Below the pieces are notes generated by a model. That model searched no databases. It saw only the letters and a list, made by a program, of their open reading frames with translations, and was not told where the DNA came from. DNA of 64,000 bases, taken from an uncultured Bacteroidales bacterium (GTDB taxonomy: Bacteria > Bacteroidota > Bacteroidia > Bacteroidales > Bacteroidaceae). A program made the position numbers and the translations under genes. The stretch spans positions 248,001-312,000 of the forward strand of contig CACXKA010000003.1 of assembly GCA_902768125.1 (NCBI GenBank), in the 5' to 3' direction. Shown piece after piece: positions 13,339 to 28,604 of the stretch (the stretch's first letter is position 1; every line of letters starts with the position of its first letter).

Positions 13339-16300
13339 TTATCTGACGGAGAACTTGAAGCTGGTCTTGCTGCCGTTTGCTCCCTTCACGCTGGCGATGT
13401 AGATGCCTGCTGGAAGGTCGCTTGTGGATACCGTGGCGGTGCCGCTGGTGAGGTCGATGGTGAACTGCTGCTGTTGCAGACCTGCGATTGAGTAGATGTC
13501 AAGTGTGGCTGTGGTTGCCTCGCCCTGGATGATGAGCTGTGTGCCAGCCAGACGGATGCTGATCTGGTCTTCGTTCCTTGCCAGGATTGGTGCGATGTCA
13601 TCAGGCTCCTCGACAATGATGCCTGTGTCCTTGCCAATGTATTTGTCGTAGGTGTGGAGGGAGTTGGTCTGACCGATGGTTGGACGGTTCATGATGTAGA
13701 AGTTGTTGCCGCCATCAGGATAGCGTCCCACGGTCTGGTCGCCCTTGTGTGGCTGATAGACGATGTGGTCAGCAAAGTACTTGAGGGATGGATGTGCCTC
13801 GAAGTATGCCTGGTTGTTGGCGATGAATTCGTCTGACCATGTGAGGACGACTTCCATGTTCTTGTCTTCGCCGTTGTTGAGCTTGAAGTCGGAGTGGAGG
13901 TTGGAGAAGTAGATGCCTTCGCGAACCACGCCGAGTGGGGTGTTGGTGAAGACGAGATCCTTTGAGTTGAGCTTGTCGCACCAGATGATGAGCTTGCCGC
14001 CTGGCTTGATGACGGTCTGCACTTCTGGGTTGCCTGCAGGAATCTGATACTTGTATGGCTTCTCAGGGTTGTCGCTCAGGTAGAGACCTGCCACGTTGAG
14101 GGTCACGTCGGTGGGGTTGTACAGCTCAATCCAGTCGTTCTTCTTGTAGTGCTCGTTCACGTAGATGGTGTTGGCTGCACTCACCTCGTTGATGCGGATT
14201 GGAGTGTATGGGGCTGCCTCGCGGTTGGCGATGATTTCTTCGTCGGCGATTGGCTCGAACCATGCTGTGATGGTGGTGTTGCTGGTGGTGGTGACGACGT
14301 CCTTGAGGTCAATCGTTGATTTACTCCTGTTCTTCAACGTTGAGCTGGTTCCAATCTTCCAGCCTTTTAACTCATAGCCAGCAGGAGCGGTTGCAGAGAT
14401 GACTGCTGGTGCGAACACGGTGCCCACGAGCTTGCCAGTGGGAATGGTCACGTCGTTGAGCTTCAGCACAGCCTTGTCGAGATTGCTCTGGATGGTGACG
14501 TTGTAGCTCTTGTCGAGATTGAAGAAGTTCTTCAGCGCGTTCATGCGGGTGGTGCGCTTTGACTTGTTGGTGATGTCGTCGAGCAAGTCGTTGCCTGAGA
14601 TGCTGTTGCCGGCAGCGTTGTGCTTCTCCTTTGCCGTCCAAGGGTTCAGACCGTCGAGCGCCAGTGCTGCCTCGCTGTAGGCTGCCATGCTTTTGATGAT
14701 CTCGGTGGAGCGGTCGATGTCGAAGATACTGCCGTTGATAACGCAATAGGTGTCGATGAAGTTCTGCTTGAATTCAGCACGGGTGAAGAGGTTGGAGAGC
14801 AGGTCGGTGAGGGAGGTCTCGTCGAACCAGCCGCCGCCTCCCCAGCCTCCCCAGCCTCCCCAGCCTCCACCGCCTTGGTTCTGGCTGCCTTTGTTGGCGT
14901 TGAATTTGCTGAAGAGGTCGGTGCGCTTGAAGGCTTCATCCACGTCGAAGAAGACGAAGTGGAACTTGCCGTCGTTGCGGTCACGGAACAGCTTGGTGTT
15001 GTTGTTGTTGGTCACCCAGTCCTCCGAACCCACGTACAGCTGTGTGGCGAAGTAGTTGCACACCTCGTCGATGTCGCAGAGGTCGCAGATCTGATTCCAG
15101 ATGTCGTCGTCGGTGGGATTGGATGAGAGGTCGTTGCAGAGGGATGTCCACTTCCTGTATGTGGTGTCATCACCAGCCTTCACGTTATAACCACCGCTGT
15201 ACTCCATCTGGTCAATTTCGTCTTTGTCGATGCCATAGTTGGCATAGGCGTAGTTCTTGTTGGAGGTCTCACGGAGATTGTACATGAACTTGTACTGACC
15301 GTTGATGAACACGTGGGTTGGCTGATAAGCCTGACAGTCAATATAGAATCCGCTGCTTGAGAGTATCTCATGGATGGCTGCATCCACGATGCGGCATTCG
15401 CAGTCGTTACCACCGTTGCGCACGACGATGGCCTTGTTCTTGGTGTAGGGCTTCTGAGTGAAGATAGGGTAGGAGAAGTAGTTTTTCTCCTCGCCATATA
15501 ACTTCCCGGCTTTCAGCTTGAAGGATGGGGAAGGACCGAAGTGACGGCTCCATCCACCGCTCACCTCAAGGTCAACTCCCTGGTTGAGCGCCACACAATA
15601 TTCCTTGTCTTTGTTGGGCACAATCAGCTCGAAGTTGACGGGACGTTCCCATCCACGGTTCTTGTTGCTCTTGGGACCTCCATTGGGACCACGTCCTGTG
15701 ATACCGTTGGTGCCGTCAACGAGAACGCCAATCTTGTCGCCATAGACATTGTCAGAAGCTGTGACGACCGATACGATAGGGAGGTAATAGCTGCTGGAGT
15801 TATAGATATAAGAATGTGTGGCTACGTCGCTGGGGAGGAAGCCATCCTTGTAAAGACGGAAACGGTAAACGTAGTTCTTCTTGTTGCCGATGCTGAACAC
15901 GCCGTCCTCGCTGGTTGAGCCGTTGTCGAGGTCTGGCACAGAGCCATCGGTCGTATAGCGGAGGGTGGCTCCTTCAGGAATGGTGACGCGGATGTCGAAG
16001 CCTGTGGAGTAAACAGTTCCTGTCTTGTCAACCACTGGCGTCTCCAATTGCTCTTCGGCAAAGATGCTGCCGGCATTCGTCTTGCCCTGGGTGGGCGTGT
16101 AGGTGTAGCCCCATTCGTCACCCCCGTCGGTCTTGCGGGCATAGCTGCAACGTGCAATGGCCTTTGGACAGATCTGTTTGATGATGAGCTTGCCGTTCTT
16201 GTCGGAAATATAAAGCGTATCGGCTTCTGGGTCAATCTTGAAATCAATCTGATTCTTGGCTTTGTCGCTATATTCGCTGCCTGTGTCGTAGTGGTCAAAC

Positions 16301-16593
16301 CACAAGGTCTTGAATCCCTTGGCAGGCACGGAGCCGTTTCCGCTGGGAATCTGTACCAATTTGAGGTTGTTTTTGTCCCAACTGATGTACATGCCGTTCA
16401 GGCTGATTGCGGAACTGGTTGGATTGTAGAGTTCTATCCATCCACCATAATTGTAAGATGGATCGAGCATCATGTCGATGTTTCTCGCCATGATCTCATT
16501 GACGACAAGATTAGTGGTACTGGTACTTTGCGCATTAACAACTTGGAAGCATGACAATACTGCCAATGCTACCAAACTTATTTTTCTCTTCAT
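13339..16593 (-). CDS. Secreted CotH-kinase / lamin-tail-domain protein with T9SS tail (CotH 1)
   Basis: The 1084-residue protein has a signal peptide (about 1-21), a lamin-tail domain (about 28-140, VVNEIMARNIDMML), a chitobiase-like beta domain (about 180-260, ATLRYTTDGSVPD), then a CotH kinase domain (about 310-640), a second lamin-tail domain (about 800-920, RINEVSAANTIYVNE) and a C-terminal T9SS sorting domain (DIYSIAGLQ...LPAGIYIASVKG). Kinase residues look intact: Asp525 in EDWVTNNNN and Asp550/Asp552 in FFDVDEAF, plus VVRNGGND and YNLRET. CotH of Bacillus phosphorylates spore-coat proteins on serine; here the protein should act outside the cell on an unknown target. A paralogue lies at 22005. 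A Gly-Trp minisatellite follows the DVD motif. Confidence 0.88.
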   Translation of the reverse strand: MKRKISLVALAVLSCFQVVNAQSTSTTNLVVNEIMARNIDMMLDPSYNYGGWIELYNPTSSAISLNGMYISWDKNNLKLVQIPSGNGSVPAKGFKTLWFDHYDTGSEYSDKAKNQIDFKIDPEADTLYISDKNGKLIIKQICPKAIARCSYARKTDGGDEWGYTYTPTQGKTNAGSIFAEEQLETPVVDKTGTVYSTGFDIRVTIPEGATLRYTTDGSVPDLDNGSTSEDGVFSIGNKKNYVYRFRLYKDGFLPSDVATHSYIYNSSSYYLPIVSVVTASDNVYGDKIGVLVDGTNGITGRGPNGGPKSNKNRGWERPVNFELIVPNKDKEYCVALNQGVDLEVSGGWSRHFGPSPSFKLKAGKLYGEEKNYFSYPIFTQKPYTKNKAIVVRNGGNDCECRIVDAAIHEILSSSGFYIDCQAYQPTHVFINGQYKFMYNLRETSNKNYAYANYGIDKDEIDQMEYSGGYNVKAGDDTTYRKWTSLCNDLSSNPTDDDIWNQICDLCDIDEVCNYFATQLYVGSEDWVTNNNNTKLFRDRNDGKFHFVFFDVDEAFKRTDLFSKFNANKGSQNQGGGGWGGWGGWGGGGWFDETSLTDLLSNLFTRAEFKQNFIDTYCVINGSIFDIDRSTEIIKSMAAYSEAALALDGLNPWTAKEKHNAAGNSISGNDLLDDITNKSKRTTRMNALKNFFNLDKSYNVTIQSNLDKAVLKLNDVTIPTGKLVGTVFAPAVISATAPAGYELKGWKIGTSSTLKNRSKSTIDLKDVVTTTSNTTITAWFEPIADEEIIANREAAPYTPIRINEVSAANTIYVNEHYKKNDWIELYNPTDVTLNVAGLYLSDNPEKPYKYQIPAGNPEVQTVIKPGGKLIIWCDKLNSKDLVFTNTPLGVVREGIYFSNLHSDFKLNNGEDKNMEVVLTWSDEFIANNQAYFEAHPSLKYFADHIVYQPHKGDQTVGRYPDGGNNFYIMNRPTIGQTNSLHTYDKYIGKDTGIIVEEPDDIAPILARNEDQISIRLAGTQLIIQGEATTATLDIYSIAGLQQQQFTIDLTSGTATVSTSDLPAGIYIASVKGANGSKTSFKFSVR
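14824..14876 (-). repeat. In-frame 9-bp minisatellite coding Gly-Gly-Trp repeats
   Basis: Tandem copies of a 9-bp unit (plus strand CCAGCCTCC) encode GGGGWGGWGGWGGGGW inside CotH 1, about 25 residues after the DxD metal-binding motif. Unit gain or loss would keep the frame. The paralogue at 22005 lacks it. Confidence 0.8.
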
Positions 16594-16989
16594 TGGAATA
16601 AATTAATAAAAAACTGTTCTTTTGCTTTTGACGTAAGAATTAGGCGAATGGTTTAGTTTGGTTTTGACTATTTTACCCTTTTCCGAGTGTAAAATTAGGC
16701 ATTTTTTTTGGAACGGAACTTATGATTTTTCCTAATTAACTCTATCGGAGCTGTTATTCAGATAAAAGAGGCGAAAAATCGCAAAAATAAGTGTCCGTTT
16801 TGGTAATAATGAATCTATTTTGTGCTTTTTTAAAAGTTTTTCACCAAAAATGAAGTCGGGTAAATATTTATTGTGTATCTTTGCTAACTGAAAACTAACA
16901 TTACCGACCAATTCACTATTTTGGGGAATTACTTATACATTATTAATTATTATCAATATTTTATCAATCTTATTACTACTAATTAAATC
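16594..16989. other. Divergent intergenic region between CotH 1 and the secreted phosphatase
   Basis: The 396-bp AT-rich spacer separates two divergent large secreted genes. TATCTTTG at 16876-16883 is a good -7 element for the rightward gene. CAAAAATA at 16782-16789 is a possible -7 for the leftward gene, without a clear -33. No open frame or RNA gene is seen, and the 100 nt before 16990 would be an AT-rich leader. Confidence 0.5.
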
Positions 16990-19900
16990 ATGAAAGAGAA
17001 ATTTAAATGGTTCATTGCCTCTTTGATGGTAATGGTGTGCTTGCAGATGGCTGCACAGCCTGAAGGCAAGTTCTACCTGTACAACACCGCCTACAAGGTG
17101 TTTCTCAGTCGTACGACTACAGGTACTAATGTTGACCAGTTCGGTGTTCCTGTCGAAATCAAGATGGCATTGCCGGGCTGTTCTCTGATGTTCCTTGACA
17201 ACGGTCGCTATGTAGCTGTTAATGGCTCAGCGATCAAGAGTGATTCGGAGACTGCTTCGAAGGTTACGCTCGAAGCCGTTGAGGGTGGCTACACTTTGAC
17301 ATTTGAGGATGGCAACCTTCTCGGTGTGGAAGGAAACGACGGTGCTTTGGCTTGCAAGAACAAGCCTGCATCGTCAAGCTTTGCAACATTGTGGCAGTTG
17401 AAGAGTCAGGCAGAGCGCGATGCTATCGTGGAAGCTCAGCAAGTTGCGCAAATTGAGGCTATCGCCAAGGCTGCAGAAATCACCTTGGGTGATGGCGACA
17501 AGAAGGCACTGTTCTTGGAGGCTTTGAAGGAGTTCAAGACGGAAGACGCTACTGATTTGATCAGCAATCCAACTTTGGCGACCAGTCAGGACGATTGGAC
17601 AGTGAAAGTGTTGGCAGGAAACAACAATATTGCCTACAAGGATGCGTATCCAATGACACTGTATCAGAACACGGCTATGGAGATTTCACAGTCTCTGGAA
17701 GTGCCTAATGGTATCTACAAAGCAACTATCCAGAACACCTATCGTTCTTCAAAGCGTGAGACACTGGATAATTATGCAACGAAAGAAGGCATCAGCATCT
17801 GCAACGCATATTTCGCTGCTAATGACAATCAGGCTCAGGCTGTTGAGTGGTCCAAGATTCGCACATCTTCCACTTTGCCTTACTCTCGTGGTGACTTCGA
17901 TAATTTCACCACCAACACTAAATACACCACAACGGTGTGGGCTTATGTGGCTGACGGAAAGCTGACGCTGAAGTATGCAGTGCCTGCCATTAACAATTCA
18001 GGTGGTGACTACGACCTTGACTGGTTCACTTTCGCCAATGTAACCCTGACTCGCTACTATAAGGCTTCAGCAGAGGTTGATGAGACTCAGTTCGATCTTT
18101 ACAATGAACTTGCTGCCCAGTCGTCAGACCCATCTTCATACTATACTGCTCTGAACACCTTGAAAGATCAAGTGGCTGGAGGAAGTATGACGGCGGATGA
18201 CGCAATAGCTAACTTGCGTACGGAAATCTTCAAGTTGATGAAGACTGTTCCTGCCCTCGCGGGTCAATATGACATCACCAGCTTCGTGAAGAATCCTTCA
18301 TTCGATAATGGTGTCAAAGACTGGACATCACCAGGTAAAAACTTCAAGGCTGCAAGCAAAATTGTAGAGTGCACGGGAATCAAGACAATGGACCGTATTG
18401 CTCAGACTCTTCCAGACATGCCTGCTGGTGAATATACAGTCAAGGTGCAGGGCTTCTATCGTAATGGTGGATGGAAGCAGGCTTTGGCTAACTATGAACG
18501 TGGCAAGGACGAAGTGAAGGCAAGCCTTTACGTGAACAACCAGTCCAACATGAAGCCACTGAAGAGCATCTTCGCTGACGGATGTTACATGTTGGTTGGT
18601 AAGCATCACAAATCTGCAGATGTATATTCAGTCGTAAGCGGCAAAGGTTATCCTCATAGCCACTACATCGACGAAAACAATCGTTCGAATTCCATCAAGA
18701 CTCCAGACATTGCAAAACAGGCAATAGATCATGGTCACTATTGGAATGAAATAACAGTTACTCAAGAAGAGGAAGGCGACTTGACCATCGGTGTCTATCT
18801 GGCTGCAGGTGCTCCTACTGACAATTGGGTTGCCATTGACAACTTCCGTCTCTACTACGGAACTCCAGCTCCTGTCACTATTGCTGCATCTCCAAGCATC
18901 GGTCCAGCTGTGTTCGATGACACCTATGCTGGCGTTGTGGTGAAGAAGAGCCTCAAGGCTGATGAACTTACTCCATTGGCAGTTCCTTGCGACATCCCTG
19001 CTTCTAAGTTCAAGGCAGTTTATGCTATTGGTTCACTCGATGAGAAGACTCAGACAGCCGTTCTCTGTCCTGTTGACCATGTGAGCGCAAATGTTCCATG
19101 CTATGTGGTGGCTGACAAGGATGTTGAAGAGATTACAGTGGAGGAGACTACTTATATTGCAGCTGCACAACCCGACCAGATTCCTGTGATGTGGGATGGC
19201 GGAGTTGTTTACAGAGTGCCTGGCACCTTCACTTGGAAGACTACTGCGATAGACAAGCAGGAGTACGAGGCTTCTCACTTCACTAATTTCAAGTATGTTG
19301 ATGAAAAGGACATGGATTTCGTTGCCAATATCGAAAACTTCCGTGCTCGCCAGTATTTGGAGAACACTGATTATTCAGATCCAAAAGCGCCTTCAGTGAT
19401 TGCAGAATACTTTGCTCCAGCTCCTCCACGTCTCGACGTTCCTCACAACATTGGTGTGCCTGTACCAGCAGCTAAGGTGAAGGACGCAGTTGTGAAGTAT
19501 GGCCTTGAGAACGACCTCAGCGATGCAACCAGCCGCTTGGTGCTTGATGGCTCAGATATGGCTTACATGCCAAACCTCATCCCTGGCAAGACCTATTATT
19601 TCCAGGTTGAAGCTGGTGAGGAAGTGCTGACCAAGGGTAAGGTCCAGGTTGAAGGTCCTGTCCGCATGGTTTATGCTCCAAGTATCAACAACGTCCGTGA
19701 CCTTGGTGGTTGGACTGTAATTGATGGTAGAACGGTGCGTTACGGAAAGATCTTCCGTGGTGGTGAAGTGAATGGTCTTCACCCATCTGTGGCAGAAGAC
19801 CGTCAGACGCTCATCGATCTTGGTGTTGGTGCAGAGATTGACCTACGCAAGGACAATAACTACGACAGTGGTAACGGTGGAGTAGGTAAGTGTGAATTTG

Positions 19901-20508
19901 GATTCAACCAAACGAAAGACTACTTCTTCAAGGAGGGTGGTTATGACTGTAAGGTGGAGCATTTGAAAGCTACAGATTCCAGAGCGCGCTTCAAGCAGTG
20001 GTTCCCATTCATCGTCAACCATCTCAAGGAAAACAAGGGCATTTACTACCACTGTGTATGGGGTGCTGACCGTACAGGTCTCGTGTCTGTATTGCTCGAA
20101 GGTCTCCTTGGTCTCTCTCAGGAGCAAATGAATCTTGACTATGAGTTGACTTCACTCTCATTCGCTGGACTTCGTCCAAAGGGTGGATATGAGGATGGTG
20201 ACCACCAGAAGCTCATTGAATATATCAAGACTTTCGATGGTGAGACACTCCGTGACAAGTTCGACACTTACTGGATCAGCCAAGTTAAGATTACCAAAGA
20301 ACAGATTGAAGAATTCCGTGATCTTATGCTCGAAGGTGTTCCAACAGACATCAAGGAGATTACGAATCAGGCAGATGCTCAACAATTTGATGTCAAGGCT
20401 GTTTACAGCATCACAGGTGTTGAACTGCCAATGAGTGCACTCGATGAGAGTGGCATTTACGTAGTGAAGTATAGCAATGGCGTTTCGAAGAAGATTGTGG
20501 TGAAATAA
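16990..20508 (+). CDS. Giant secreted protein with tyrosine-phosphatase-like domain
   Basis: The 1172-residue protein has a signal peptide (about 1-22), a beta-rich N-terminal domain (GKFYLYNTAYKVFLSR), and two repeated jelly-roll-like modules beginning LISNPTLATSQDDW (about 185) and SFVKNPSFDNGVKDW (about 435). The last third resembles Y_phosphatase3: NVRDLGGW, GKIFRGGEV, IDLRKDN and the P-loop HCVWGADRTG with Cys1022 and Arg1028, i.e. an intact C-x5-R site. It ends in a short T9SS-like tail (YSITGVELP...GIYVVKYSNG). Known relatives dephosphorylate tyrosine/serine or phosphoinositides; the target here is unknown. It is divergent from CotH 1, with CotH 2 further downstream. Confidence 0.85.
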   Translation: MKEKFKWFIASLMVMVCLQMAAQPEGKFYLYNTAYKVFLSRTTTGTNVDQFGVPVEIKMALPGCSLMFLDNGRYVAVNGSAIKSDSETASKVTLEAVEGGYTLTFEDGNLLGVEGNDGALACKNKPASSSFATLWQLKSQAERDAIVEAQQVAQIEAIAKAAEITLGDGDKKALFLEALKEFKTEDATDLISNPTLATSQDDWTVKVLAGNNNIAYKDAYPMTLYQNTAMEISQSLEVPNGIYKATIQNTYRSSKRETLDNYATKEGISICNAYFAANDNQAQAVEWSKIRTSSTLPYSRGDFDNFTTNTKYTTTVWAYVADGKLTLKYAVPAINNSGGDYDLDWFTFANVTLTRYYKASAEVDETQFDLYNELAAQSSDPSSYYTALNTLKDQVAGGSMTADDAIANLRTEIFKLMKTVPALAGQYDITSFVKNPSFDNGVKDWTSPGKNFKAASKIVECTGIKTMDRIAQTLPDMPAGEYTVKVQGFYRNGGWKQALANYERGKDEVKASLYVNNQSNMKPLKSIFADGCYMLVGKHHKSADVYSVVSGKGYPHSHYIDENNRSNSIKTPDIAKQAIDHGHYWNEITVTQEEEGDLTIGVYLAAGAPTDNWVAIDNFRLYYGTPAPVTIAASPSIGPAVFDDTYAGVVVKKSLKADELTPLAVPCDIPASKFKAVYAIGSLDEKTQTAVLCPVDHVSANVPCYVVADKDVEEITVEETTYIAAAQPDQIPVMWDGGVVYRVPGTFTWKTTAIDKQEYEASHFTNFKYVDEKDMDFVANIENFRARQYLENTDYSDPKAPSVIAEYFAPAPPRLDVPHNIGVPVPAAKVKDAVVKYGLENDLSDATSRLVLDGSDMAYMPNLIPGKTYYFQVEAGEEVLTKGKVQVEGPVRMVYAPSINNVRDLGGWTVIDGRTVRYGKIFRGGEVNGLHPSVAEDRQTLIDLGVGAEIDLRKDNNYDSGNGGVGKCEFGFNQTKDYFFKEGGYDCKVEHLKATDSRARFKQWFPFIVNHLKENKGIYYHCVWGADRTGLVSVLLEGLLGLSQEQMNLDYELTSLSFAGLRPKGGYEDGDHQKLIEYIKTFDGETLRDKFDTYWISQVKITKEQIEEFRDLMLEGVPTDIKEITNQADAQQFDVKAVYSITGVELPMSALDESGIYVVKYSNGVSKKIVVK

Positions 20509-20546
20509 CCGTCGCACATACACATATTATATAATGTGTAATTGTC

Positions 20547-20584
20547 AAGCGGACAAAGGTTGAAAAGCTTTTGTCCGCTTTTCT
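20547..20584 (+). terminator. Terminator after the secreted phosphatase gene
   Basis: AAGCGGACAAA and TTTGTCCGCTT form a perfect stem and are followed by TTCTTGTC. It ends the rightward gene. Confidence 0.8.
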
Positions 20585-20657
20585 TGTCTTTTGGTTCTTT
20601 ACAAAAACTTTTCTATTTGTTCTTCGCACACATGGAAATATGTTCTTCGCAAAAAAA

Positions 20658-20690
20658 GGGCTACCCCTTTTCTCACGAAAAAGAATAGCC
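20658..20690. repeat. Palindromic element, copy 2
   Basis: GGCTA and TAGCC flank TTTTC-TCAC-GAAAA, with the same outer and inner arms as the element at 13227-13260 but a less perfect middle. Confidence 0.5.
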
Positions 20691-20730
20691 ACAACACAAA
20701 CACAAAATAAAACACGACAAACGATTCTGG

Positions 20731-20787
20731 TATATCCACCAGAACGTTGCTCTGGCACGTATCGGGGTGTGTTCAAATCCCGAAACG
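20731..20787 (-). other. Two hairpins downstream of galE
   Basis: TTCTGGT/ACCAGAA (20733-20752) and ACGT-A-TCGGG/CCCGA-A-ACGT (20758-20787) are two stable stems between the end of galE and the palindromic element. They may stabilise or end the galE mRNA, though neither has a strong T run. Part of the second stem resembles a tRNA T-arm loop (GTTCAAATCC), but no tRNA can be folded. Confidence 0.4.
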
Positions 20788-20796
20788 TTATGTGAT

Positions 20797-21831
20797 TTAC
20801 TGCACGCCGTCAGCGCGGAGTTTCTCCTGCCATTTCCACGCGGAGCGCAGGATCTCGTCGAGTGGAGTGTCGGCACTCCAGCCGAGCACTTTGTTTGCCT
20901 TGTCGACGTTACCCCAGATGGCTTCGATATCGCCTTCACGACGGGGTGCATATTCCCATGGGAGTTTCACACCTGTTGCTTTCTCGAATCCTTCTACGAT
21001 TTCGAGGGTGGAGTAACCGTGACCTGTGCCAATGTTGAACACCTCAACAGGGTCGGTTTCCTGTTCGAGCACTCGCTGCATTGCCTTCACGTGTGCCTTG
21101 GCGAGATCGACCACGTAGATGTAGTCGCGGATGCAAGTCTTGTCGGGGGTGTTGTAGTCATTGCCAAACACCTTCAACTGTTTGCGGATGCCAATGGCGG
21201 TCTGAGTGACAAATGGAATGAGGTTCATGGGAACTCCGTTGGGCAACTCACCGATGAGTGCGGATGGGTGTGCGCCGATGGGGTTGAAGTATCGAAGGAT
21301 GACGGACTTGATGGGTGCACCCGAATGGATGTAGTCCTGAATGATTTCCTCGTTGATTTGCTTGGTGTTTCCATAAGGAGACAAAGCTTTCTGGATGGGT
21401 GCCTGCTCTGTGACAGGAAGGTTCTCCTTGGTGGGCTGTCCATAGACGGTGCAGGAAGAGGAGAAGATGATGCCCTTGCTGCCATACTTGGTCATCAACT
21501 CCAGCACGTTCATGAGGGAGTTGAGGTTGTTGCGATAGTAGAGCAGGGGCTTTTCCACAGATTCTCCCACAGCCTTGGAAGCAGCGAAGTGGATACAGCC
21601 TTTGATGGAGTATTTCTTGAAAACGGCTTCTGTTGCATCAAAATCATTCAGGTCCACCTTCTCAAAAGCTGGACGGATGCCTGTGATTTTTTCAATGCCG
21701 TCAATGACTGAGGCATTGGAATTGGATAAGTTGTCAATAATCACCACATCGTAACCTGCTTGTTGCAGTTCGACAGTGGTGTGTGAACCAATGAAGCCGG
21801 TTCCACCCGTTACGAGGATTGTTTCTTTCAT
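20797..21831 (-). CDS. galE: UDP-glucose 4-epimerase
   Basis: The 344-residue extended short-chain dehydrogenase interconverts UDP-glucose and UDP-galactose, for the Leloir pathway and cell-surface glycans. The NAD-binding motif is TGGTGFIGSH (about residue 8), the catalytic pair is Tyr153/Lys157 (YGNTK), with Ser/Thr in SSSCTVYG. C-terminal APRREGDIEAIWGNVDKA is typical of GalE. It has a -7 element on its own side and is convergent with the secreted phosphatase gene. Confidence 0.95.
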   Translation of the reverse strand: MKETILVTGGTGFIGSHTTVELQQAGYDVVIIDNLSNSNASVIDGIEKITGIRPAFEKVDLNDFDATEAVFKKYSIKGCIHFAASKAVGESVEKPLLYYRNNLNSLMNVLELMTKYGSKGIIFSSSCTVYGQPTKENLPVTEQAPIQKALSPYGNTKQINEEIIQDYIHSGAPIKSVILRYFNPIGAHPSALIGELPNGVPMNLIPFVTQTAIGIRKQLKVFGNDYNTPDKTCIRDYIYVVDLAKAHVKAMQRVLEQETDPVEVFNIGTGHGYSTLEIVEGFEKATGVKLPWEYAPRREGDIEAIWGNVDKANKVLGWSADTPLDEILRSAWKWQEKLRADGVQ

Positions 21832-21913
21832 GTCCGTGTATTCTAATTTTTACTTGATAGTCATTTACAATGAATGACGAAGAGTGAATCGTTCTGTTTT
21901 TTTATTTGATTTG

Positions 21914-21921
21914 CAAATATA
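21914..21921 (-). promoter_or_regulatory. -7 element of the galE promoter
   Basis: The minus strand reads TATATTTG, matching TAnnTTTG, 83 nt before the galE ATG. No good -33 TTTG was found. Confidence 0.45.
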
Positions 21922-22004
21922 GAACAAATAATTCATTCCTCGTCATCCAATAATCAATTATTTTTAGCGAAAGTGCGCTTTACATCATAAAATACCTCTT
22001 TTTC

Positions 22005-25000
22005 TTACTTTATGATGAATTTTATATGACATTCATCGCCTTCTTCGGTGGTTGCCCTGACGATATAGATGCCTCTTGGCAGGTTAGCCACGTTGATGGT
22101 GACAAATTTGTTGCCTGCATGAGTGAAGTTGAAAGCCTCCATCTTCATACCTGCCATGCTGAACACCTCAGCGGAACTGATGACAGCATCCTCGCTCTTG
22201 ATGTTGACCACACCATTCACGTAAGCGATGGTGATGCCGCCTTCACGAGTGTAGGACTGGATGGCATCTGGCGTTGGTTCGATAGGCTTGACATAGAGCG
22301 TGTCGTAAGAACCTATCTTGTTTGCCTTGGCGATGGTTGGGATGTTCATCACGTACACATCGTTGGCACCGTCAGGATAACGACCATAAGTTTCTGTGCC
22401 CAGATGCTGCTCGTAAGCCAGCGTATCCTTGTATGTGTCGGTGGCAATGATAACTTCACCGCCCTTGGTCTCCAGTTTGAAGCTCGTGTGGATGTCTGCA
22501 CCGATGATGTCGAGCTTGTCGCACCAGATAACCTTGTAACTATGGGCTGGGATGATGGTGTTGAGGGTCACGTTGTCGGATGGCACTTGGAAGTCATGAC
22601 GTTTCTCGTTCTTGGATTTGTCGGTGACAAGAGAAATATTCATGCCCTTGATGTCAATGTCTCCATCTGTAGTATTGTACAGCTCAATCCAATCATTCTT
22701 CTTATAATAATCATTAATGTAGATGGAATTGGCTGCACTCACCTCATTGATGCGAACAGGGGTGATACCCTCTGCCAAGATGTCAATGTCTGAATTGTTC
22801 TCGAACACAGCAACGATATTCTGTTGACCTGTAGCGGGGAGTGTGTATTCAGCTTCTTTCGACACGAAGTTTTGTGCATTGTCCTTTTCAATTTTTGAGA
22901 GAGATGCTTCCCAAAGAATGTCTGTAGATGTCGCACTGTTGTTGTGCACCTCCACAGCAATCACATTCGTTCCCTTCTTGAAGAGAGAACCATTCAACTT
23001 CATCTGTCCCTTATCTGGGTTATTGTTGGCATGTGTGGTTGAATAACTTTCGTATGTGATAGAGCCTGATGGCATATTGTAGCGTCCAGCCTCCACGCCG
23101 TTGACATAGACAATCATACCGTCGTCGATAGTGTAGTCAAGAATGAATTCATCGCTTGCAGCAGGAGCGCTGCTAAGATTGAAGGATTTCCGGAAATAGT
23201 AGGTGGGGCGTTTGTTGTTGGAGTCGGTACCATAATCAAGCGTTGTGACCACACCGCTCTTGCTGTATCCGAGTGGTGCCTTGCCTGATGTCCAGGTGGA
23301 GGTGCTGTAGCTTGATGCCTGCCAATTCTTCCCGTTCAAAGAGCCTTTGTCGTAGTACATCCAACTCTCGCCAGTGGCAAATATACTGATTGTCTTGGTT
23401 GTGCCCGCATTCTTCCATCCCACAAAACTGTATCCCGCAGGAGCCTGTGCTTTCAACGTAATCGGAGAGAAGAGATAACCATCAAATTCGGAGTAGGGCA
23501 GTTCGAGCCCGTTCACCATCACCTTGGCATCGGAGGCTCCACTGGTGGCTATCTGAACCTTTTGGCGTTCCACACCTCCCAGTTGCATGTGTGAACAATT
23601 CTGCAAGGCATTCGTGGCACCATTGTTGCGTGCGCCCAATTTTGACATCACGTCGTTGGCGGTGTTCCATGGATTCACGAAGTTGTCTGTTGCCAGGTAA
23701 CTCGCCATTTCGTTCACAATCTCCTCCACCTTGTATTGCTGGAAAACAGAACCACCTACGATACAGAAGGAATCAATGAACTGCTTGCGGAACTGCTCGT
23801 TCTTGAGCAGATTCTTGAAGAGTGTCACCACCTCCAGTTGCTTCTGATTGCGCTTTCCCTCAATACTCTCATTCCTCGAGTAATCGTAGCCATGCAGCGT
23901 GTCAAACCTGTAGTTCTCCTTGTTGAAGAATGTATTGAACATGTCGCTTGAGCCCAGATTGAACGAACCATCGAGATCGAACAGCACGAAATGGAACTTG
24001 CCGTCATTTTGGTCGCGGAAAGCCTTTACGTTGTTTTGAGGCCAATCCCAGTTGCCGATATGCAATTCAACAGCCATATAATTGATATATTCATCAATAT
24101 CCAGTAACTGACGGATTTCCTCATATGACTTTTCATCCTCTGCCGTCTCACTCAATGTCAACAAACGATCAAAGCTTTCTTTTGTTCCTTCCATCTGCAC
24201 ATATCCAGAGTCTGGTGACACTTCGAATTGATCCATCTCGTCAGTATCGATGCCATAGTTTGCGTAGGCATGGTGCTTATTGTTCGGCTCACGCATATTG
24301 AGCACGGCATAATGGCTGCCATTGATGAACACATGCACAGGTTGCCATGCCTGATGATCCACATATATTCCGCTACGTGACACCACTTGTTGAATGGCTG
24401 CATCCTTGATACGGCAGCTACCATCATTGCCACCATTGCGAATCTGCAACGTCTTGTTCTTGATGTATGGCTTCTCTGCAAAGAATTGTGCTGCAAAGAA
24501 GTTGTTGAAGTCGTATGTCTTAGAAGCCTTTAATTTGAAAGCCTTTGGATTAGATGCACGTGTCCATCCACCACAAATGGAGAGGTCACATTCTTGAGAG
24601 ATGAGACACTTGTTATCTGTGGTGATGTATTCAAATGCCACAGGCCTGTCCCAATCCATGTTCCAATTACAGTTTTCCGATCGTCCATTGCCTGGGCGTC
24701 CGTTGGGTCCCTGCTTGAACACACCATATTCTTTTGAATTGAGATTTTCATCCTTTGTCACAACCGATATGATAGGGAAAGGATAATTACGGTCATTTTT
24801 GATGTAGGATCGTGTTACAACGGTCGAAGGCAGATATCCGTTTTGGAAGAGACGGAAACGGTAGCATGTTGTATTGCTGACAGTAAAGAGTCCTGTCTTA
24901 GATACTTCTCCATTCTCCTGTGTCGGACAGGTGCCATCTGTCGTGTATTTCAATGTCGCTCCCTTGGGAATGTTGACACAAACCTGCAAGTTGCCCGTAA

Positions 25001-26405
25001 AAAGTTGTCCGTCTTTATCCACTACAGGTGCATCAAGCTGTTGGCTGGCAAATCCACCATTGGCTTGGTTCGATGTACCAGGTGAGGGATTTCCCGTCGT
25101 ACCCCATTCTGCACCTCCATCTGTAGTGCGGGCATAAGAGGTACGTGAAATGACTTCTGGATAATCTTGCTGGGCAATGATGTTGGTGCCATCAGAGATA
25201 ATGATGGTTCCACCTTCGCAGTCTAATTTGTCATCAATCTGCCGATACGATGCTTGTGTCCACACTTCAAAATGGTCAAAGTTGAGCAAGGCAAAACCCT
25301 TTGCTGGCAACGCACCATAGGTACTTAGCAGCTTGTTTTTCTTTAGATTCTTTGGGTCATCACTAATGTAGAGTCCTCCTAAAGCCACACTCTTGTCTGT
25401 TGGGTTATACAACTCCACCCAACTGCCGTAATTGAAAGAGGGGTCGAGATAGACATCCACGTTGGCAGCCATAATTTCATTGATGATAAGATTCTCAGCC
25501 GTAGGTTGTTCTCTCTTCACCGTCACTTTGCATTGTGTCTTTTTCCCGCTGCCATCCTTGGCTGTAGCTATGATGTAGCACACACCAATACCAATGGCTG
25601 TAATCTGTCCTTTGCTATCTACGGTGGCGATCGTTTTATTCGTCGATGACCAATCCACATTCAAATAAGTAGCATTAGAAGGAGATACCGTTGCTGTAAG
25701 GTCTGTGATCTCGCCTTGAGACATTTCTACACTTGTCTTAGAAAGAGTGACCGAAGTGACCTGAACCATCGTACCCCAATATTCCAATTTCCAATTGTCC
25801 AAACAGGTCCAATCCATCCCAATCCATTCATCTTTTCTGATTCCGATGGTCAACTTTCCATCGTTGTCCACTTCACAATCTACGTAATTGTTGTAATAAC
25901 CTGCATTGAACCAATAGTAGGCTGCTTCCATGTTGTTGGGTATGTAACGTCCTCCCTGTATCGTCATCAAGTAGCTGGCATCTCCTCCCAAAGATTTCTC
26001 TAATGCCGCTGAAGAAGCCAAAGCAATGGGAGAATCGTAGTAGCCCTTGTTTGAACGAGCATACAAACGAGCATATTGAGAGTTTTCGTAATTGCCAGAA
26101 GAGAATATGCTGTAATCACTATTGGAATCTCCACAACGATAGAACGCGTTGAGGCTTACACGATAGATACCAGCTTTCAGTCCTGAAAGGTTCTGGTACG
26201 AATCATAGGTCTTTTCGTAATGTTCAGCATTCTCCACAGGATTGGCTGCTCCGAATCCTGTTCCTTCCCATCCTGTGGTAATGTTGTTGTTGTCAAATCT
26301 TGGATTGATGATAGATGCATCAGTGATGTCAATCCAACCTTCCTGCGCATAGCTTGCAAGTGACAAGCATGCAAGAATAATGAAAGCGTGTAGTTTATTT
26401 GTCAT
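22005..26405 (-). CDS. Giant secreted CotH-kinase / lamin-tail-domain protein with Big_2 and T9SS tail (CotH 2)
   Basis: The 1466-residue protein has a signal peptide (about 1-20), a carbohydrate-binding-like N-terminal module (about 25-210), a bacterial Ig-like Big_2 domain (about 215-298, VTLSKTSVEM...VDWSSTNKTIATVDSKG), a lamin-tail domain (about 300-420), a chitobiase-like segment, and a CotH kinase domain with Asp787 in NWDWPQNN and Asp810/Asp812 in LFDLDGSF. A galactose-binding-like insert (YYFRKSFNLSS), a second lamin-tail domain (RINEVSAANSIYIND) and a T9SS sorting domain (EVFSMAGMK...LPRGIYIVRA) follow. It is a paralogue of CotH 1 with extra modules. The oxidoreductase and DUF4421 genes lie upstream on the same strand, 58 nt away, so co-transcription is possible. 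Confidence 0.88.
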   Translation of the reverse strand: MTNKLHAFIILACLSLASYAQEGWIDITDASIINPRFDNNNITTGWEGTGFGAANPVENAEHYEKTYDSYQNLSGLKAGIYRVSLNAFYRCGDSNSDYSIFSSGNYENSQYARLYARSNKGYYDSPIALASSAALEKSLGGDASYLMTIQGGRYIPNNMEAAYYWFNAGYYNNYVDCEVDNDGKLTIGIRKDEWIGMDWTCLDNWKLEYWGTMVQVTSVTLSKTSVEMSQGEITDLTATVSPSNATYLNVDWSSTNKTIATVDSKGQITAIGIGVCYIIATAKDGSGKKTQCKVTVKREQPTAENLIINEIMAANVDVYLDPSFNYGSWVELYNPTDKSVALGGLYISDDPKNLKKNKLLSTYGALPAKGFALLNFDHFEVWTQASYRQIDDKLDCEGGTIIISDGTNIIAQQDYPEVISRTSYARTTDGGAEWGTTGNPSPGTSNQANGGFASQQLDAPVVDKDGQLFTGNLQVCVNIPKGATLKYTTDGTCPTQENGEVSKTGLFTVSNTTCYRFRLFQNGYLPSTVVTRSYIKNDRNYPFPIISVVTKDENLNSKEYGVFKQGPNGRPGNGRSENCNWNMDWDRPVAFEYITTDNKCLISQECDLSICGGWTRASNPKAFKLKASKTYDFNNFFAAQFFAEKPYIKNKTLQIRNGGNDGSCRIKDAAIQQVVSRSGIYVDHQAWQPVHVFINGSHYAVLNMREPNNKHHAYANYGIDTDEMDQFEVSPDSGYVQMEGTKESFDRLLTLSETAEDEKSYEEIRQLLDIDEYINYMAVELHIGNWDWPQNNVKAFRDQNDGKFHFVLFDLDGSFNLGSSDMFNTFFNKENYRFDTLHGYDYSRNESIEGKRNQKQLEVVTLFKNLLKNEQFRKQFIDSFCIVGGSVFQQYKVEEIVNEMASYLATDNFVNPWNTANDVMSKLGARNNGATNALQNCSHMQLGGVERQKVQIATSGASDAKVMVNGLELPYSEFDGYLFSPITLKAQAPAGYSFVGWKNAGTTKTISIFATGESWMYYDKGSLNGKNWQASSYSTSTWTSGKAPLGYSKSGVVTTLDYGTDSNNKRPTYYFRKSFNLSSAPAASDEFILDYTIDDGMIVYVNGVEAGRYNMPSGSITYESYSTTHANNNPDKGQMKLNGSLFKKGTNVIAVEVHNNSATSTDILWEASLSKIEKDNAQNFVSKEAEYTLPATGQQNIVAVFENNSDIDILAEGITPVRINEVSAANSIYINDYYKKNDWIELYNTTDGDIDIKGMNISLVTDKSKNEKRHDFQVPSDNVTLNTIIPAHSYKVIWCDKLDIIGADIHTSFKLETKGGEVIIATDTYKDTLAYEQHLGTETYGRYPDGANDVYVMNIPTIAKANKIGSYDTLYVKPIEPTPDAIQSYTREGGITIAYVNGVVNIKSEDAVISSAEVFSMAGMKMEAFNFTHAGNKFVTINVANLPRGIYIVRATTEEGDECHIKFIIK

Positions 26406-26463: not shown

Positions 26464-27588
26464 TTAGTCTTTAGGTCGTGGCTTTCTCCAGAAGTTTACT
26501 CCCAGTAGATATTTCAATGTTCCGTAAGTGTTAGTCAGACCAAACTTGTCCTGTCGGTAATCATAGGTGTGAGCCTCCAGAATCAAACCGCTGAACATCC
26601 GCGTGTTGTTCCAAAATACAGACATACGCAAGTTGAGGTCGGTCGAGAGATTGTTCAACGTCAGTTTTTTCAAGTCAAATCCCTCTGTGATGTTTGACCT
26701 GCGATAACCGATATTAGGGATGAACGATATGGCAAATAGGACGTTGCGTCCCAGCACACAGTTATAGTTGTATCCCACGCTTACGCTGTAATCTTGGTAG
26801 CTCACGTGATTGAATAGCAGCGTTGAGTCGATGTCCTCCTTGATGTAGTCAGGCAATTCCTCCTTGTCGAAAGAGATGCTCTGATGGTTGTATTGAAAGC
26901 CTATGCTCCAACTTCCACAACTTTTTCTTTGTACGGCGTTTGCACCGAAGGCTGCAGGCCAGGAGAAATGGCGATTGTTGAACATATACACGGCGCTGAA
27001 TCCATCGCATCTTGAATCCAAACCGTGAAAAGTGCGGTCTTTTCCCTTCGTTTCAATCCCACTTACGCTTCGAATCTCCGCACCCTTTCCGGAGTTGAAC
27101 GTATAGAATTCAGCAAATATCTTCGCCGTATGAATCACCAATGATTGCCTGAGCGAAGTTCCGTTCGTCTTACCAGCCTTAATGCCAATGTCGTTCAGGT
27201 TCCACACCGCTCCATATCCGAAGATGCTGTAATAGACATATCCTCCGAGAATAACTGAAGGATCGGACTGAATGACCATCGTATTGCCTGTTTGAGAAGA
27301 CCGTAGGAAATAGTAGTCGTGCCAGAGTGACAATTCCAATTGAGTGGTCAGGTTGTACTTCTGCGGCGTGACGTAATTGGTGTCGCACCCCATGAAGAAG
27401 TTCTCAATGCCTGTCATTATACGACGGGGTAGGGACTGTTTCTTCTTTTTGGTCACCACCACGCTGTCAAGGGTCTGCTCATGAAAGTTTTCTAAGCGCT
27501 GTAGAGAATCCTCTTGGGCATAGGCAACTGCACATGTCACAGTCGCCAGCAATGCTGCACACCAGATTCTTTTCAAAACCCTACACAT
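26464..27588 (-). CDS. DUF4421-like outer-membrane beta-barrel protein
   Basis: The 374-residue protein has a signal peptide (CRVLKRIWCAALLATVTCAVAYAQ). The mature part has alternating aromatic strand patterns (YSVSVGYNYNCVLGRNVLFAISFIPNIGY) and ends in LLGVNFWRKPRPKD, as in DUF4421 proteins of Bacteroidetes, predicted outer-membrane barrels of unknown role. I prefer ATG 27588 (21 nt after the upstream stop) to the in-frame ATG 27642 because the signal peptide then starts at residue 1. It sits between a Gfo/Idh/MocA gene and CotH 2. Confidence 0.75.
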   Translation of the reverse strand: MCRVLKRIWCAALLATVTCAVAYAQEDSLQRLENFHEQTLDSVVVTKKKKQSLPRRIMTGIENFFMGCDTNYVTPQKYNLTTQLELSLWHDYYFLRSSQTGNTMVIQSDPSVILGGYVYYSIFGYGAVWNLNDIGIKAGKTNGTSLRQSLVIHTAKIFAEFYTFNSGKGAEIRSVSGIETKGKDRTFHGLDSRCDGFSAVYMFNNRHFSWPAAFGANAVQRKSCGSWSIGFQYNHQSISFDKEELPDYIKEDIDSTLLFNHVSYQDYSVSVGYNYNCVLGRNVLFAISFIPNIGYRRSNITEGFDLKKLTLNNLSTDLNLRMSVFWNNTRMFSGLILEAHTYDYRQDKFGLTNTYGTLKYLLGVNFWRKPRPKD

Positions 27589-27608
27589 AACCCCGTTTTC
27601 TCTTTCTC

Positions 27609-28604
27609 TTAGATTCTTCCTAATATTCGATCCATCACCCAATTGGTGGGTGTTGCGCTCACTGAGTCACAATCGCACTTTTCTTCACCTCTCAAATGCT
27701 TCACCACTTTCTCAATCAGCCCCATCTGCACATGTGGCGGATTAGGAATGACGATTTGTTCCTGTCCCCGCTCTGTGTCCAACACAATTGGCTCGTAGTC
27801 AAACACAGAGAACACCACTTTTCCTCTCGTCCCGACAATGGAAATACGATCTCTTCTTGCAGATTCATGTGCCACAAAACACCATGACGCACTGCCTGTA
27901 AGTCCATTACTGAAACGGAAACATGCATTGAAAGTGTCTTCGACTTTGTATAGTCCAGCCATGTTTTGGCAAAATCCCTCTGCCTCCACTATGGGACCGA
28001 ACCAATATTGCAACAAGTCTATCTGGTGTGACGCAAGGTCGTAGAAATATCCACCTCCTCCAGCTACTTCTGGCTGCAATCTCCATGGCAGTTCTTTCCC
28101 GCTTTTATAATCCAATTCTCTGGGGGGAACGGCAAAACGGATCTGTACCGTCAATACTTCCCCGATTTCTCCTTCTATCACAATCTGTTTCACCTTTTCG
28201 AAATAGGGTAGGTATCTTCTGTAGAAAGCCACAAAACAAGGGATGCCCGTGAGGTCGCTGATGCGGTTCACTCTCAAACAATCTTCATAACCTGCAGCCA
28301 AAGGCTTTTCGATGTAAGCAGGTTTGCCAGCTTTCATAGCCATAATGGCAAAAGTGGCATGAGACGAAGGGGGAGTCGCAATATAAACGGCGGTCACTTC
28401 AGGGTCGCTCACCAATGACTGGGCATCGGAATAATACTTCTTGATTCCGTGACGCTCAGCATACGATTTTGCCTTTCCCTTGTCGCGACTCATGACTGCC
28501 ACGACTTCACTTCCTTCGATTTTGCCAAATGCGGGACCACTTTTCTTCTCCGTCACTTCACCGCAACCAATGAATCCCCATTTCACTATGTTTTGTACTT
28601 CCAT
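27609..28604 (-). CDS. Gfo/Idh/MocA family NAD(P)-dependent oxidoreductase
   Basis: The 331-residue protein has an N-terminal Rossmann fold (KWGFIGCGEVTEKKSGPAF), the family motif EKPLA at about residue 95 (AYIEKPLAAGYED) and the C-terminal alpha/beta domain with GGGYFYDLASHQIDLLQYWFG, which carries the usual catalytic His region. It most likely oxidises or reduces a sugar or inositol; the substrate cannot be read from sequence. ATG 28604 was chosen, because the -7 element CAAAGTTA (minus TAACTTTG) at 28644-28651 excludes the in-frame ATG at 28646. First gene of a possible three-gene unit. Confidence 0.88.
   Translation of the reverse strand: MEVQNIVKWGFIGCGEVTEKKSGPAFGKIEGSEVVAVMSRDKGKAKSYAERHGIKKYYSDAQSLVSDPEVTAVYIATPPSSHATFAIMAMKAGKPAYIEKPLAAGYEDCLRVNRISDLTGIPCFVAFYRRYLPYFEKVKQIVIEGEIGEVLTVQIRFAVPPRELDYKSGKELPWRLQPEVAGGGGYFYDLASHQIDLLQYWFGPIVEAEGFCQNMAGLYKVEDTFNACFRFSNGLTGSASWCFVAHESARRDRISIVGTRGKVVFSVFDYEPIVLDTERGQEQIVIPNPPHVQMGLIEKVVKHLRGEEKCDCDSVSATPTNWVMDRILGRI

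What the first reader, a model, noticed from the sequence alone, without database searches (positions are those of the whole stretch)
13339..26405. Secreted CotH kinases and a secreted tyrosine phosphatase in one neighbourhood
Two giant T9SS-tailed proteins with apparently active CotH kinase residues (CotH 1: Asp525, Asp550/552; CotH 2: Asp787, Asp810/812) lie around a giant T9SS-tailed protein with an intact C-x5-R phosphatase loop (Cys1022, Arg1028), which is divergent from CotH 1. CotH is known in Bacillus to phosphorylate coat proteins; a matched kinase/phosphatase set exported by type IX secretion would suggest reversible phosphorylation outside the cell. Neighbourhood is seen; the joint function is inference.
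Basis: partly seen in the sequence, partly recalled or inferred. Interest (0 to 1): 0.75.

Follow-up and report, generated by a model that had tools for sequence, protein, structure and literature searches.

The report
Secreted CotH kinase–phosphatase gene pair
A gut bacterium carries exported relatives of a spore-coat kinase beside an exported phosphatase, and some related rumen and gut bacteria keep a smaller version of this kinase–phosphatase pair together so consistently that the two probably work on the same target outside the cytoplasm.

Summary
In detail: CotH1, a PF13350 Cys-phosphatase (PTP) and CotH2 lie where stated, with the named residues. The reading is partly supported. CotH1 and PTP orthologs occur in the same 7 of 45 genus genomes, divergent neighbours in all 7. 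The PTP orthologs seen outside the genus have no CotH beside them. CotH1/CotH2-type proteins occur in 43 of 45 genus genomes, so CotH2 is not specific to PTP. The PTP's T9SS tail is below cut-off. CotH1 keeps the D/N/D/D residues but lacks conserved basic residues, so "apparently active" is too strong.

The better evidence is a second, smaller pair that I found: a ~360–410-aa PTP beside an ~840-aa CotH, probably a lipoprotein. Among 399 family genomes, exactly the same 12 carry both, always within 2 kb. A scan by phosphatase alone gave CotH neighbours at 29 of 33 such loci but 1 of 45 others. The 30 paired loci share no third gene family, and orientation has changed about 4 times. My searches showed no report of this pairing. 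Activity, substrate and ATP source are untested.

The parts
13339..16593 (-). CotH1: signal peptide (by eye), LTD, CHB_HEX/Fn3-associated (below Pfam cut-off), CotH domain (about 342-652), InlB-like, second LTD, T9SS tail
   Evidence: D525/N532/D550/D552 present, KK pair and LIRN Arg absent
14623..15585 (-). CotH kinase-like domain of CotH1
   Evidence: own HMM envelope plus 5 residues each side, aligned to PDB 5JD9 through profile A2
16594..16989 (.). divergent intergenic region between CotH1 and phosphatase; conserved block with a TATCTTTG element (Bacteroidota -7 consensus, recalled) upstream of the phosphatase
   Evidence: present in all 6 genus genomes aligned
16990..20508 (+). secreted multi-domain PF13350 phosphatase: beta-trefoil-like and carbohydrate-binding-like modules before an Ig/Fn3-like region, catalytic domain, weak T9SS-like tail
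   Evidence: order of the non-catalytic modules inferred from the model's secondary structure, since one search gives no aligned ranges
19660..20346 (+). phosphatase catalytic domain with HCVWGADRTG loop (C1022, R1028)
   Evidence: H, C, G, A, D, R of the loop invariant in 18 aligned sequences, window included
20797..21831 (-). GalE-like NAD-dependent epimerase between phosphatase and CotH2; bystander
   Evidence: same place in L067, L068, L069, L157
22005..26405 (-). CotH2: signal peptide (by eye), Big_2, LTD, CHB_HEX, CotH domain (about 608-914), LTD, T9SS tail; not specific to the phosphatase

Best explanation
In Bacteroidales, some exported CotH-family kinases work with an exported PF13350 Cys-phosphatase as a kinase-phosphatase pair acting on the same surface-located target. 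In the clearest form (shown by genomics) the pair is a ~840-aa CotH, probably a lipoprotein, with intact catalytic residues, and a ~360-410-aa Sec-exported phosphatase. My proposed mechanism (inferred): CotH adds phosphate to Ser residues, or to a glycan, of an envelope-exposed partner, and the phosphatase removes it, so the phosphate state can be reset. The window locus is a larger, T9SS-exported relative in one genus: CotH1 and the phosphatase are co-inherited divergent neighbours whose extra lectin/CBM-like and LTD modules would place them on the same glycan-rich surface. CotH1 is sequence-divergent in the N-lobe region, so whether it is still a kinase is open. CotH2 is an independent paralogue.
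For: Pair-type phosphatase (profile A4, 552-664 bits, next 247) and pair-type CotH (profile A3, 635-1398 bits, next 280) are present in exactly the same 12 of 399 family genomes, each on one contig within 2 kb. In 344 order-wide genomes both occur only in G510, adjacent (5 further genomes had weaker CotH relatives at 340-351 bits). Scan by phosphatase alone (best 80 of 145 relatives kept, 78 loci): CotH in the held flanks at 29 of 33 loci with the GCDR[CT]G loop versus 1 of 45 other loci (recount). Merged non-duplicate set: 30 of 34 loci have CotH, 25 of these within 250 bp and all 30 within 2 kb; arrangements 20 P>C, 1 C>P, 7 convergent, 2 divergent; 4 changes on the tree; mirror-tree r 0.87 over 29 loci. 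At those 30 loci only these two families are in all; the next is in 7. Paired CotHs keep K, K, R, D, N, D, D in 23 of 23 aligned rows; these positions are also invariant in the 20-sequence alignment, which includes the 3 loci missing from the 23. Window type: CotH1 and phosphatase orthologs in the same 7 of 45 genus genomes, adjacent in all 7. The phosphatase tree puts the window clade and the GCDRCG clade apart, so the association probably arose more than once; in L086 a third kind of pair lies 15 bp apart on one strand.
Against: Window-type phosphatase orthologs outside the genus lack adjacent CotH (L071-L074, some flanks short; L244, L253 with 5.5-7.8 kb flanks). Most PF13350 ORFs examined have none: 19 of 68 do, flanks often short. 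Three GCDRCG loci (L184, L190, L210) and L252 lack CotH. CotH1 has lost KK and Arg. No structural test of the kinase site. CotH is a Ser kinase in Bacillus whereas PF13350 enzymes are usually assayed on pTyr or phosphoinositides (recalled), so the chemistry need not match. No ATP source outside the cell is known to me. Co-inheritance of a neighbouring pair also follows from joint transfer. No fusion protein among the ORFs held.
Confidence: 0.5

Rival explanations
1. In the window the neighbours are functionally unrelated: the phosphatase is a secreted hydrolase for dietary or host phospho-compounds (phosphoglycans, phosphoinositides, phytate-like esters), and CotH1 a surface protein that happens to lie beside it in one genus.
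For: Orthologs of the window phosphatase elsewhere have no adjacent CotH; most PF13350 ORFs examined stand without one (49 of 68); lectin/CBM-like modules; genomes G021, G145, G102, G086 have a phosphatase relative and CotH1-like proteins, but on different contigs.
Against: 7 of 7 adjacency with identical presence in the genus; independent CotH-phosphatase pairs in other clades.
Confidence: 0.3
2. CotH1 is a pseudokinase or structural scaffold; only the phosphatase is catalytic, acting on material phosphorylated by other enzymes.
For: CotH1 lost both lysines (P, S) and the LIRN Arg (V), which are invariant in the 23 paired CotHs aligned; structural roles are suggested for cellulosomal CotH beside regulatory ones (PMC12484212, passage seen).
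Against: D525, N532, D550, D552 are invariant in the 13 aligned CotH1/CotH2 relatives.
Confidence: 0.25
3. The pair acts on a glycan or small molecule rather than protein serine: CotH as a sugar-type kinase, the phosphatase trimming the phosphate, like the FAM20B xylose kinase and its phosphatase in animals (recalled).
For: CotH shares sequence similarity with Fam20C (PMC12189002, passage seen); lectin or CBM-like modules on the window phosphatase and on one CotH (L092 ricin-type lectin).
Against: The CotH chemistry I know of is Ser phosphorylation of coat proteins (PMC7821199, start of abstract and passages).
Confidence: 0.2
4. The pairing is only a mobile cassette: the two genes travel together without shared function.
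For: Patchy presence in 12 of 399 genomes over five genera; flanking genes differ among most loci.
Against: Pair kept through 4 orientation changes, 25 of 30 within 250 bp; catalytic residues conserved in both partners; no other gene family in more than 7 of the 30 loci, so no common transposase.
Confidence: 0.1

Closest known systems
Bacillus CotH spore-coat kinase (PF08757, PDB 5JD9/5JDA)
   Same: Same kinase-like domain; a profile of these CotHs hits 5JD9 at E 1e-19; D166/N171/D184 equivalents present in both window CotHs.
   Different: Here exported (T9SS tails, or a probable lipoprotein) with LTD modules and paired with a phosphatase. [quoted passage not shown]
PF13350 PTPs: C. difficile PTP (8dhi/8dhj), M. 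tuberculosis PtpB (1ywf/2oz5)
   Same: Catalytic fold (Foldseek TMt 0.50-0.58) and C-x5-R loop.
   Different: Loop is GADRTG (window) or mostly GCDRCG (paired) where the short canonical relatives mostly have GKDRTG or GKGRTG; linked to CotH; large added modules in the window protein.
LTD-Fn3-CotH cellulosomal protein Cthe_0239
   Same: LTD, LTD, Fn3, CotH architecture listed in PMC6083626 (passage), much as in the paired Bacteroidales CotH.
   Different: Cellulosomal in Clostridium; no phosphatase partner mentioned in the passages seen.
Bacterial kinase/phosphatase gene pairs (BY-kinase with PTP, PrkC/PrpC) (recalled)
   Same: Neighbouring genes for opposing activities.
   Different: Those catalytic domains are cytoplasmic (recalled); here both partners carry export signals and the kinase is of the CotH/Fam20C kind.

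Membership tests
CotH kinase family (PF08757) | Pfam match above gathering score | tested here: met
   CotH1 72.7, CotH2 102.4 vs 23.8 bits
CotH kinase family (PF08757) | Catalytic/metal residues equivalent to PKA D166, N171, D184 | tested here: met
   CotH1 D525/N532/D550; CotH2 D787/N792/D810 aligned to 5JD9
CotH kinase family (PF08757) | Conserved Lys pair and Arg of the N-lobe region (conserved in alignment; role not established here) | tested here: not met
   CotH1: P,S and V; CotH2: P,K and K; 23 of 23 paired CotHs have K,K,R; over all 98 rows K1 47, K2 81, R 83
CotH kinase family (PF08757) | Kinase activity | not testable with these tools
   no assay; AF2 model of the domain unusable
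PF13350 Cys-phosphatase | Pfam match and intact C-x5-R loop | tested here: met
   84.7 vs 22.2 bits; C1022/R1028
PF13350 Cys-phosphatase | PTP fold | tested here: met
   Foldseek hits to 8dhj (TMt 0.55) and 1ywf (0.58) on a model of mean pLDDT 77.6
T9SS type A cargo | C-terminal sorting domain above cut-off | tested here: inconclusive
   CotH1 28.6 and CotH2 32.3 vs 23 bits met; phosphatase 11.3 not met
T9SS type A cargo | T9SS sortase in the genome | tested here: met
   PorU NF033707, 923 bits vs 420
Co-conserved kinase-phosphatase pair | Co-occurrence across genomes | tested here: met
   pair type: same 12 of 399; window CotH1+PTP: same 7 of 45; CotH2 fails (CotH1/CotH2-type in 43 of 45)
Co-conserved kinase-phosphatase pair | Adjacency kept beyond one genus | tested here: inconclusive
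   pair type met; window type not met outside the genus
Co-conserved kinase-phosphatase pair | Opposing activities on one substrate | not testable with these tools
   needs biochemistry

The most novel reading that the evidence does not exclude
Rumen and gut Bacteroidales carry a dedicated, self-contained reversible phosphorylation switch outside the cytoplasm: a Fam20C/CotH-type secretory kinase paired with a Cys-phosphatase, in a compact lipoprotein form and an enlarged T9SS form, acting on surface proteins or glycans.
Probability: 0.35. Interest if true: 0.85.

Novelty: new variant of a known kind. Interest (0 to 1): 0.6.

Why it matters
CotH proteins are common in this bacterial family (matches in 105 of 151 genomes), yet what they do in gut bacteria is, as far as I know, only guessed at; in Bacillus their phosphorylation is thought possibly irreversible because no phosphatase is known to be expressed at the right stage (PMC7821199, passage). 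A phosphatase that, in the 399 genomes searched, was never found without one particular CotH gives a concrete partner, a small two-gene system to express and assay, and a way to ask whether bacteria run reversible phosphorylation outside the cytoplasm, and with what ATP.

Tried and rejected
Rejected: CotH2 as part of the matched set (CotH1/CotH2-type proteins in 43 of 45 genus genomes regardless of the phosphatase). Rejected: a third conserved partner or substrate gene near the pair (none above 7 of 30 loci). Looked for and not found: kinase-phosphatase fusions (0 ORFs with both domains among 104 CotH and 221 PTP ORFs). Rejected: an anti-phage reading (only two weak PADLOC matches, E 0.0023 and 0.00045, in 7 proteins). 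Not usable: AF2 model of CotH1; I did not run a fold search on it. Foldseek's top-ranked insecticidal-protein and ectodomain hits to the phosphatase model were set aside as probably shared jelly-roll modules (TM about 0.1). Mixed: a simple lipobox pattern matched 5 of 6 CotHs looked at, in some of them at a Cys other than the aligned one; the lipoprotein claim rests on the Cys that is invariant in 20 of 20 aligned sequences. Literature: 9 searches, several with more papers than were listed, showed no paper on a CotH-phosphatase pair in the listings; no held paper contains both Pfam accessions (6 papers hold one of them). The main CotH paper (Nguyen 2016) is not held and is cited only through others.

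Dropped or limited: of the non-canonical PF13350 places listed, I fetched 60 regions and left 10 places unfetched. In one search, 12 duplicate loci were removed (L177, L182, L187, L188, L200, L256-L262), L252 (a Lachnospiraceae-labelled bin with the same loop motif, no CotH) was skipped, and L142 and L143 (clipped copies of L167 and L087) appear among its 35 rows; I count 33 loci plus L252 = 34. The 29 of 33 includes L252 and the duplicates of earlier loci. In one search, 3 of the 26 paired loci named (L191, L194, L209) fell out because the domain hit was split. In some searches only the best 5 or 4 (phosphatase) and 2 (CotH) first-look candidates per genome were scored. Part of the output was cut. 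Co-occurrence figures are not corrected for phylogeny.

Full report
Observation. The three ORFs are at the stated coordinates and strands. Pfam gives CotH for both flanking proteins and Y_phosphatase3 for the middle one, all above cut-off. The named residues are there. CotH1 and CotH2 have T9SS tails above cut-off; the phosphatase tail is below it, though PorU is in the genome. The genome (2.78 Mb, 41 contigs) has six CotH domains and one PF13350 domain, so two CotHs round the only PF13350 protein is unlikely to be chance, but it is one event.

Conservation of the window locus. In 45 genomes of the genus, full-length phosphatase orthologs (71-75% identity in the six others) occur in 7 (G000, G185, G172, G063, G141, G014, G081). 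CotH1 orthologs (76-84%) occur in the same 7 (in G172 split over two contigs), and the two genes are divergent neighbours in all 7 (in G172 from match coordinates, about 0.4 kb). G169 has CotH1-like fragments and a partial phosphatase paralogue on different contigs. In another genus (anonymised g21) the phosphatase ortholog sits among other genes without CotH (L071, L072; L073 and L074 have short flanks on one or both sides); two further such phosphatases from named bins, L244 and L253, have none either. Four g21 genomes have CotH1-like proteins (54-59%) on other contigs. CotH1/CotH2-type proteins are in 43 of 45 genus genomes, so CotH2 is not tied to the phosphatase.

Active site. Aligned to 5JD9, both window CotHs keep the residues equivalent to PKA D166, N171 and D184 and the second Asp. 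CotH1 has P,S in place of the Lys pair and V in place of the Arg of the LIRN motif; CotH2 has P,K and K. Over 98 aligned rows (some duplicate loci) the first Lys is kept in 47, the second in 81 and the Arg in 83; 23 of 23 paired CotHs have K,K,R and all Asp/Asn residues. A review states that CotH keeps D166, N171 and D184 and binds the adenine between two aromatics, Tyr142 and Trp245 (PMC12189002, passages). I read the residue before D184 as that Trp position: it is Phe in both window CotHs and Tyr in the 23 paired rows. This placement is my inference. The AF2 model of CotH1 was too poor to test the site.

The phosphatase. The AF2 model (mean pLDDT 77.6, pTM 0.56) matches C. difficile PTP and M. 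tuberculosis PtpB (TMt 0.50-0.58), and also CBM and beta-trefoil structures, which I assign to the N-terminal half (the search gives no aligned ranges). The H, C, G, A, D and R of the loop are invariant in 18 aligned sequences.

A second pair. Looking round the non-canonical PF13350 hits (60 regions fetched, 10 listed places not), 19 of 68 phosphatase ORFs, window included, had a CotH within 10 kb, with flanks often short. Several were directly adjacent and different in layout from the window: a short phosphatase next to an LTD-CHB_HEX-CotH protein with an N-terminal Cys invariant in 20 of 20, consistent with a lipoprotein. A scan of a collection of 84,980 species genomes with the short phosphatase alone found 145 relatives and kept the best 80, 78 loci; all but a few are labelled Bacteroidales or families within it, and many titles name rumen or other gut sites. 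CotH was present in the held flanks at 29 of 33 loci with the GCDR[CT]G loop and 1 of 45 others. The exceptions are L184, L190 and L210 (6.6-8.0 kb flanks without CotH; L210 is a second copy in a bin whose other copy, L202, has CotH) and L252, labelled Lachnospiraceae. In the merged non-duplicate set 30 of 34 loci have CotH, 25 of these within 250 bp, in four arrangements (20 P>C, 1 C>P, 7 convergent, 2 divergent), with 4 changes on the tree and mirror-tree r 0.87 (L252 added by me as the 34th). Among 345 predicted genes at the 30 paired loci only these two families are in all 30; the next is in 7. Those 30 were chosen for having both, so the result speaks to a third partner only.

Presence and absence. 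Profile searches of the same 399 family genomes gave pair-type phosphatase in 12 (552-664 bits; next 247) and pair-type CotH in the same 12 (635-1398 bits; next 280), at most 2 kb apart, in five genera. Over the order (344 genomes) both were found only in G510, adjacent; five other genomes had weaker CotH relatives of 340-351 bits without the phosphatase. These figures are uncorrected for phylogeny, and only the best few candidates per genome were scored.

Independent origins. In the phosphatase tree (169 tips, midpoint-rooted) the window clade and the GCDRCG clade are separated by CotH-less branches, and L086 is a third layout (15 bp apart on one strand, with a collagen-repeat CotH). Some internal supports are low.

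Mechanism. Shown: co-conservation and adjacency, N-termini that look like export signals, intact catalytic residues in the paired proteins. Inferred: opposing activities on one target. Unknown: target, phosphate acceptor, ATP source. Against: PF13350 enzymes are mostly known as pTyr or phosphoinositide phosphatases (recalled), while Bacillus CotH phosphorylates Ser. [quoted passage not shown]

Verdict. New variant of a known kind.

Noticed in passing
L260:9597-9881 (also L180:9109-9393, same contig): A 42-bp tandem repeat (4.8 copies) encodes a Ser/Asp-rich peptide (SPSDCSDSDSGFYF-like) right after the paired phosphatase and before CotH. Among the gaps looked at it was seen only in this genome; it resembles a possible Ser-rich kinase substrate.
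   Followed up: partly
L199:11731-14133 and L213:11712-14159: A second CotH follows the first in tandem behind the paired phosphatase.
   Followed up: no
L189:9228-10331, L196:9146-10219, L202:9167-10339: An ORF that looks LTD-only, with a lipoprotein-like start, lies between the phosphatase and CotH; perhaps a duplicated or split N-terminal part of CotH.
   Followed up: no
L086:9884-12556 and L092:4379-6322: CotH joined to collagen-like repeats and DUF4988 (L086) and CotH joined to a ricin-type lectin (L092).
   Followed up: no
window 26464-27642: A DUF4421 protein lies 58 bp upstream of CotH2 on the same strand; a similar protein has that place in L067, L068, L069 and L157.
   Followed up: partly
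L071 and L072: Outside the genus the window-type phosphatase is followed by a conserved run of five other gene families, not CotH.
   Followed up: no
L255:3941-4107: A g21 genome has a CotH1 start (82% over 59 aa) at a contig end beside a different upstream gene, so CotH1 can occur away from the phosphatase.
   Followed up: partly
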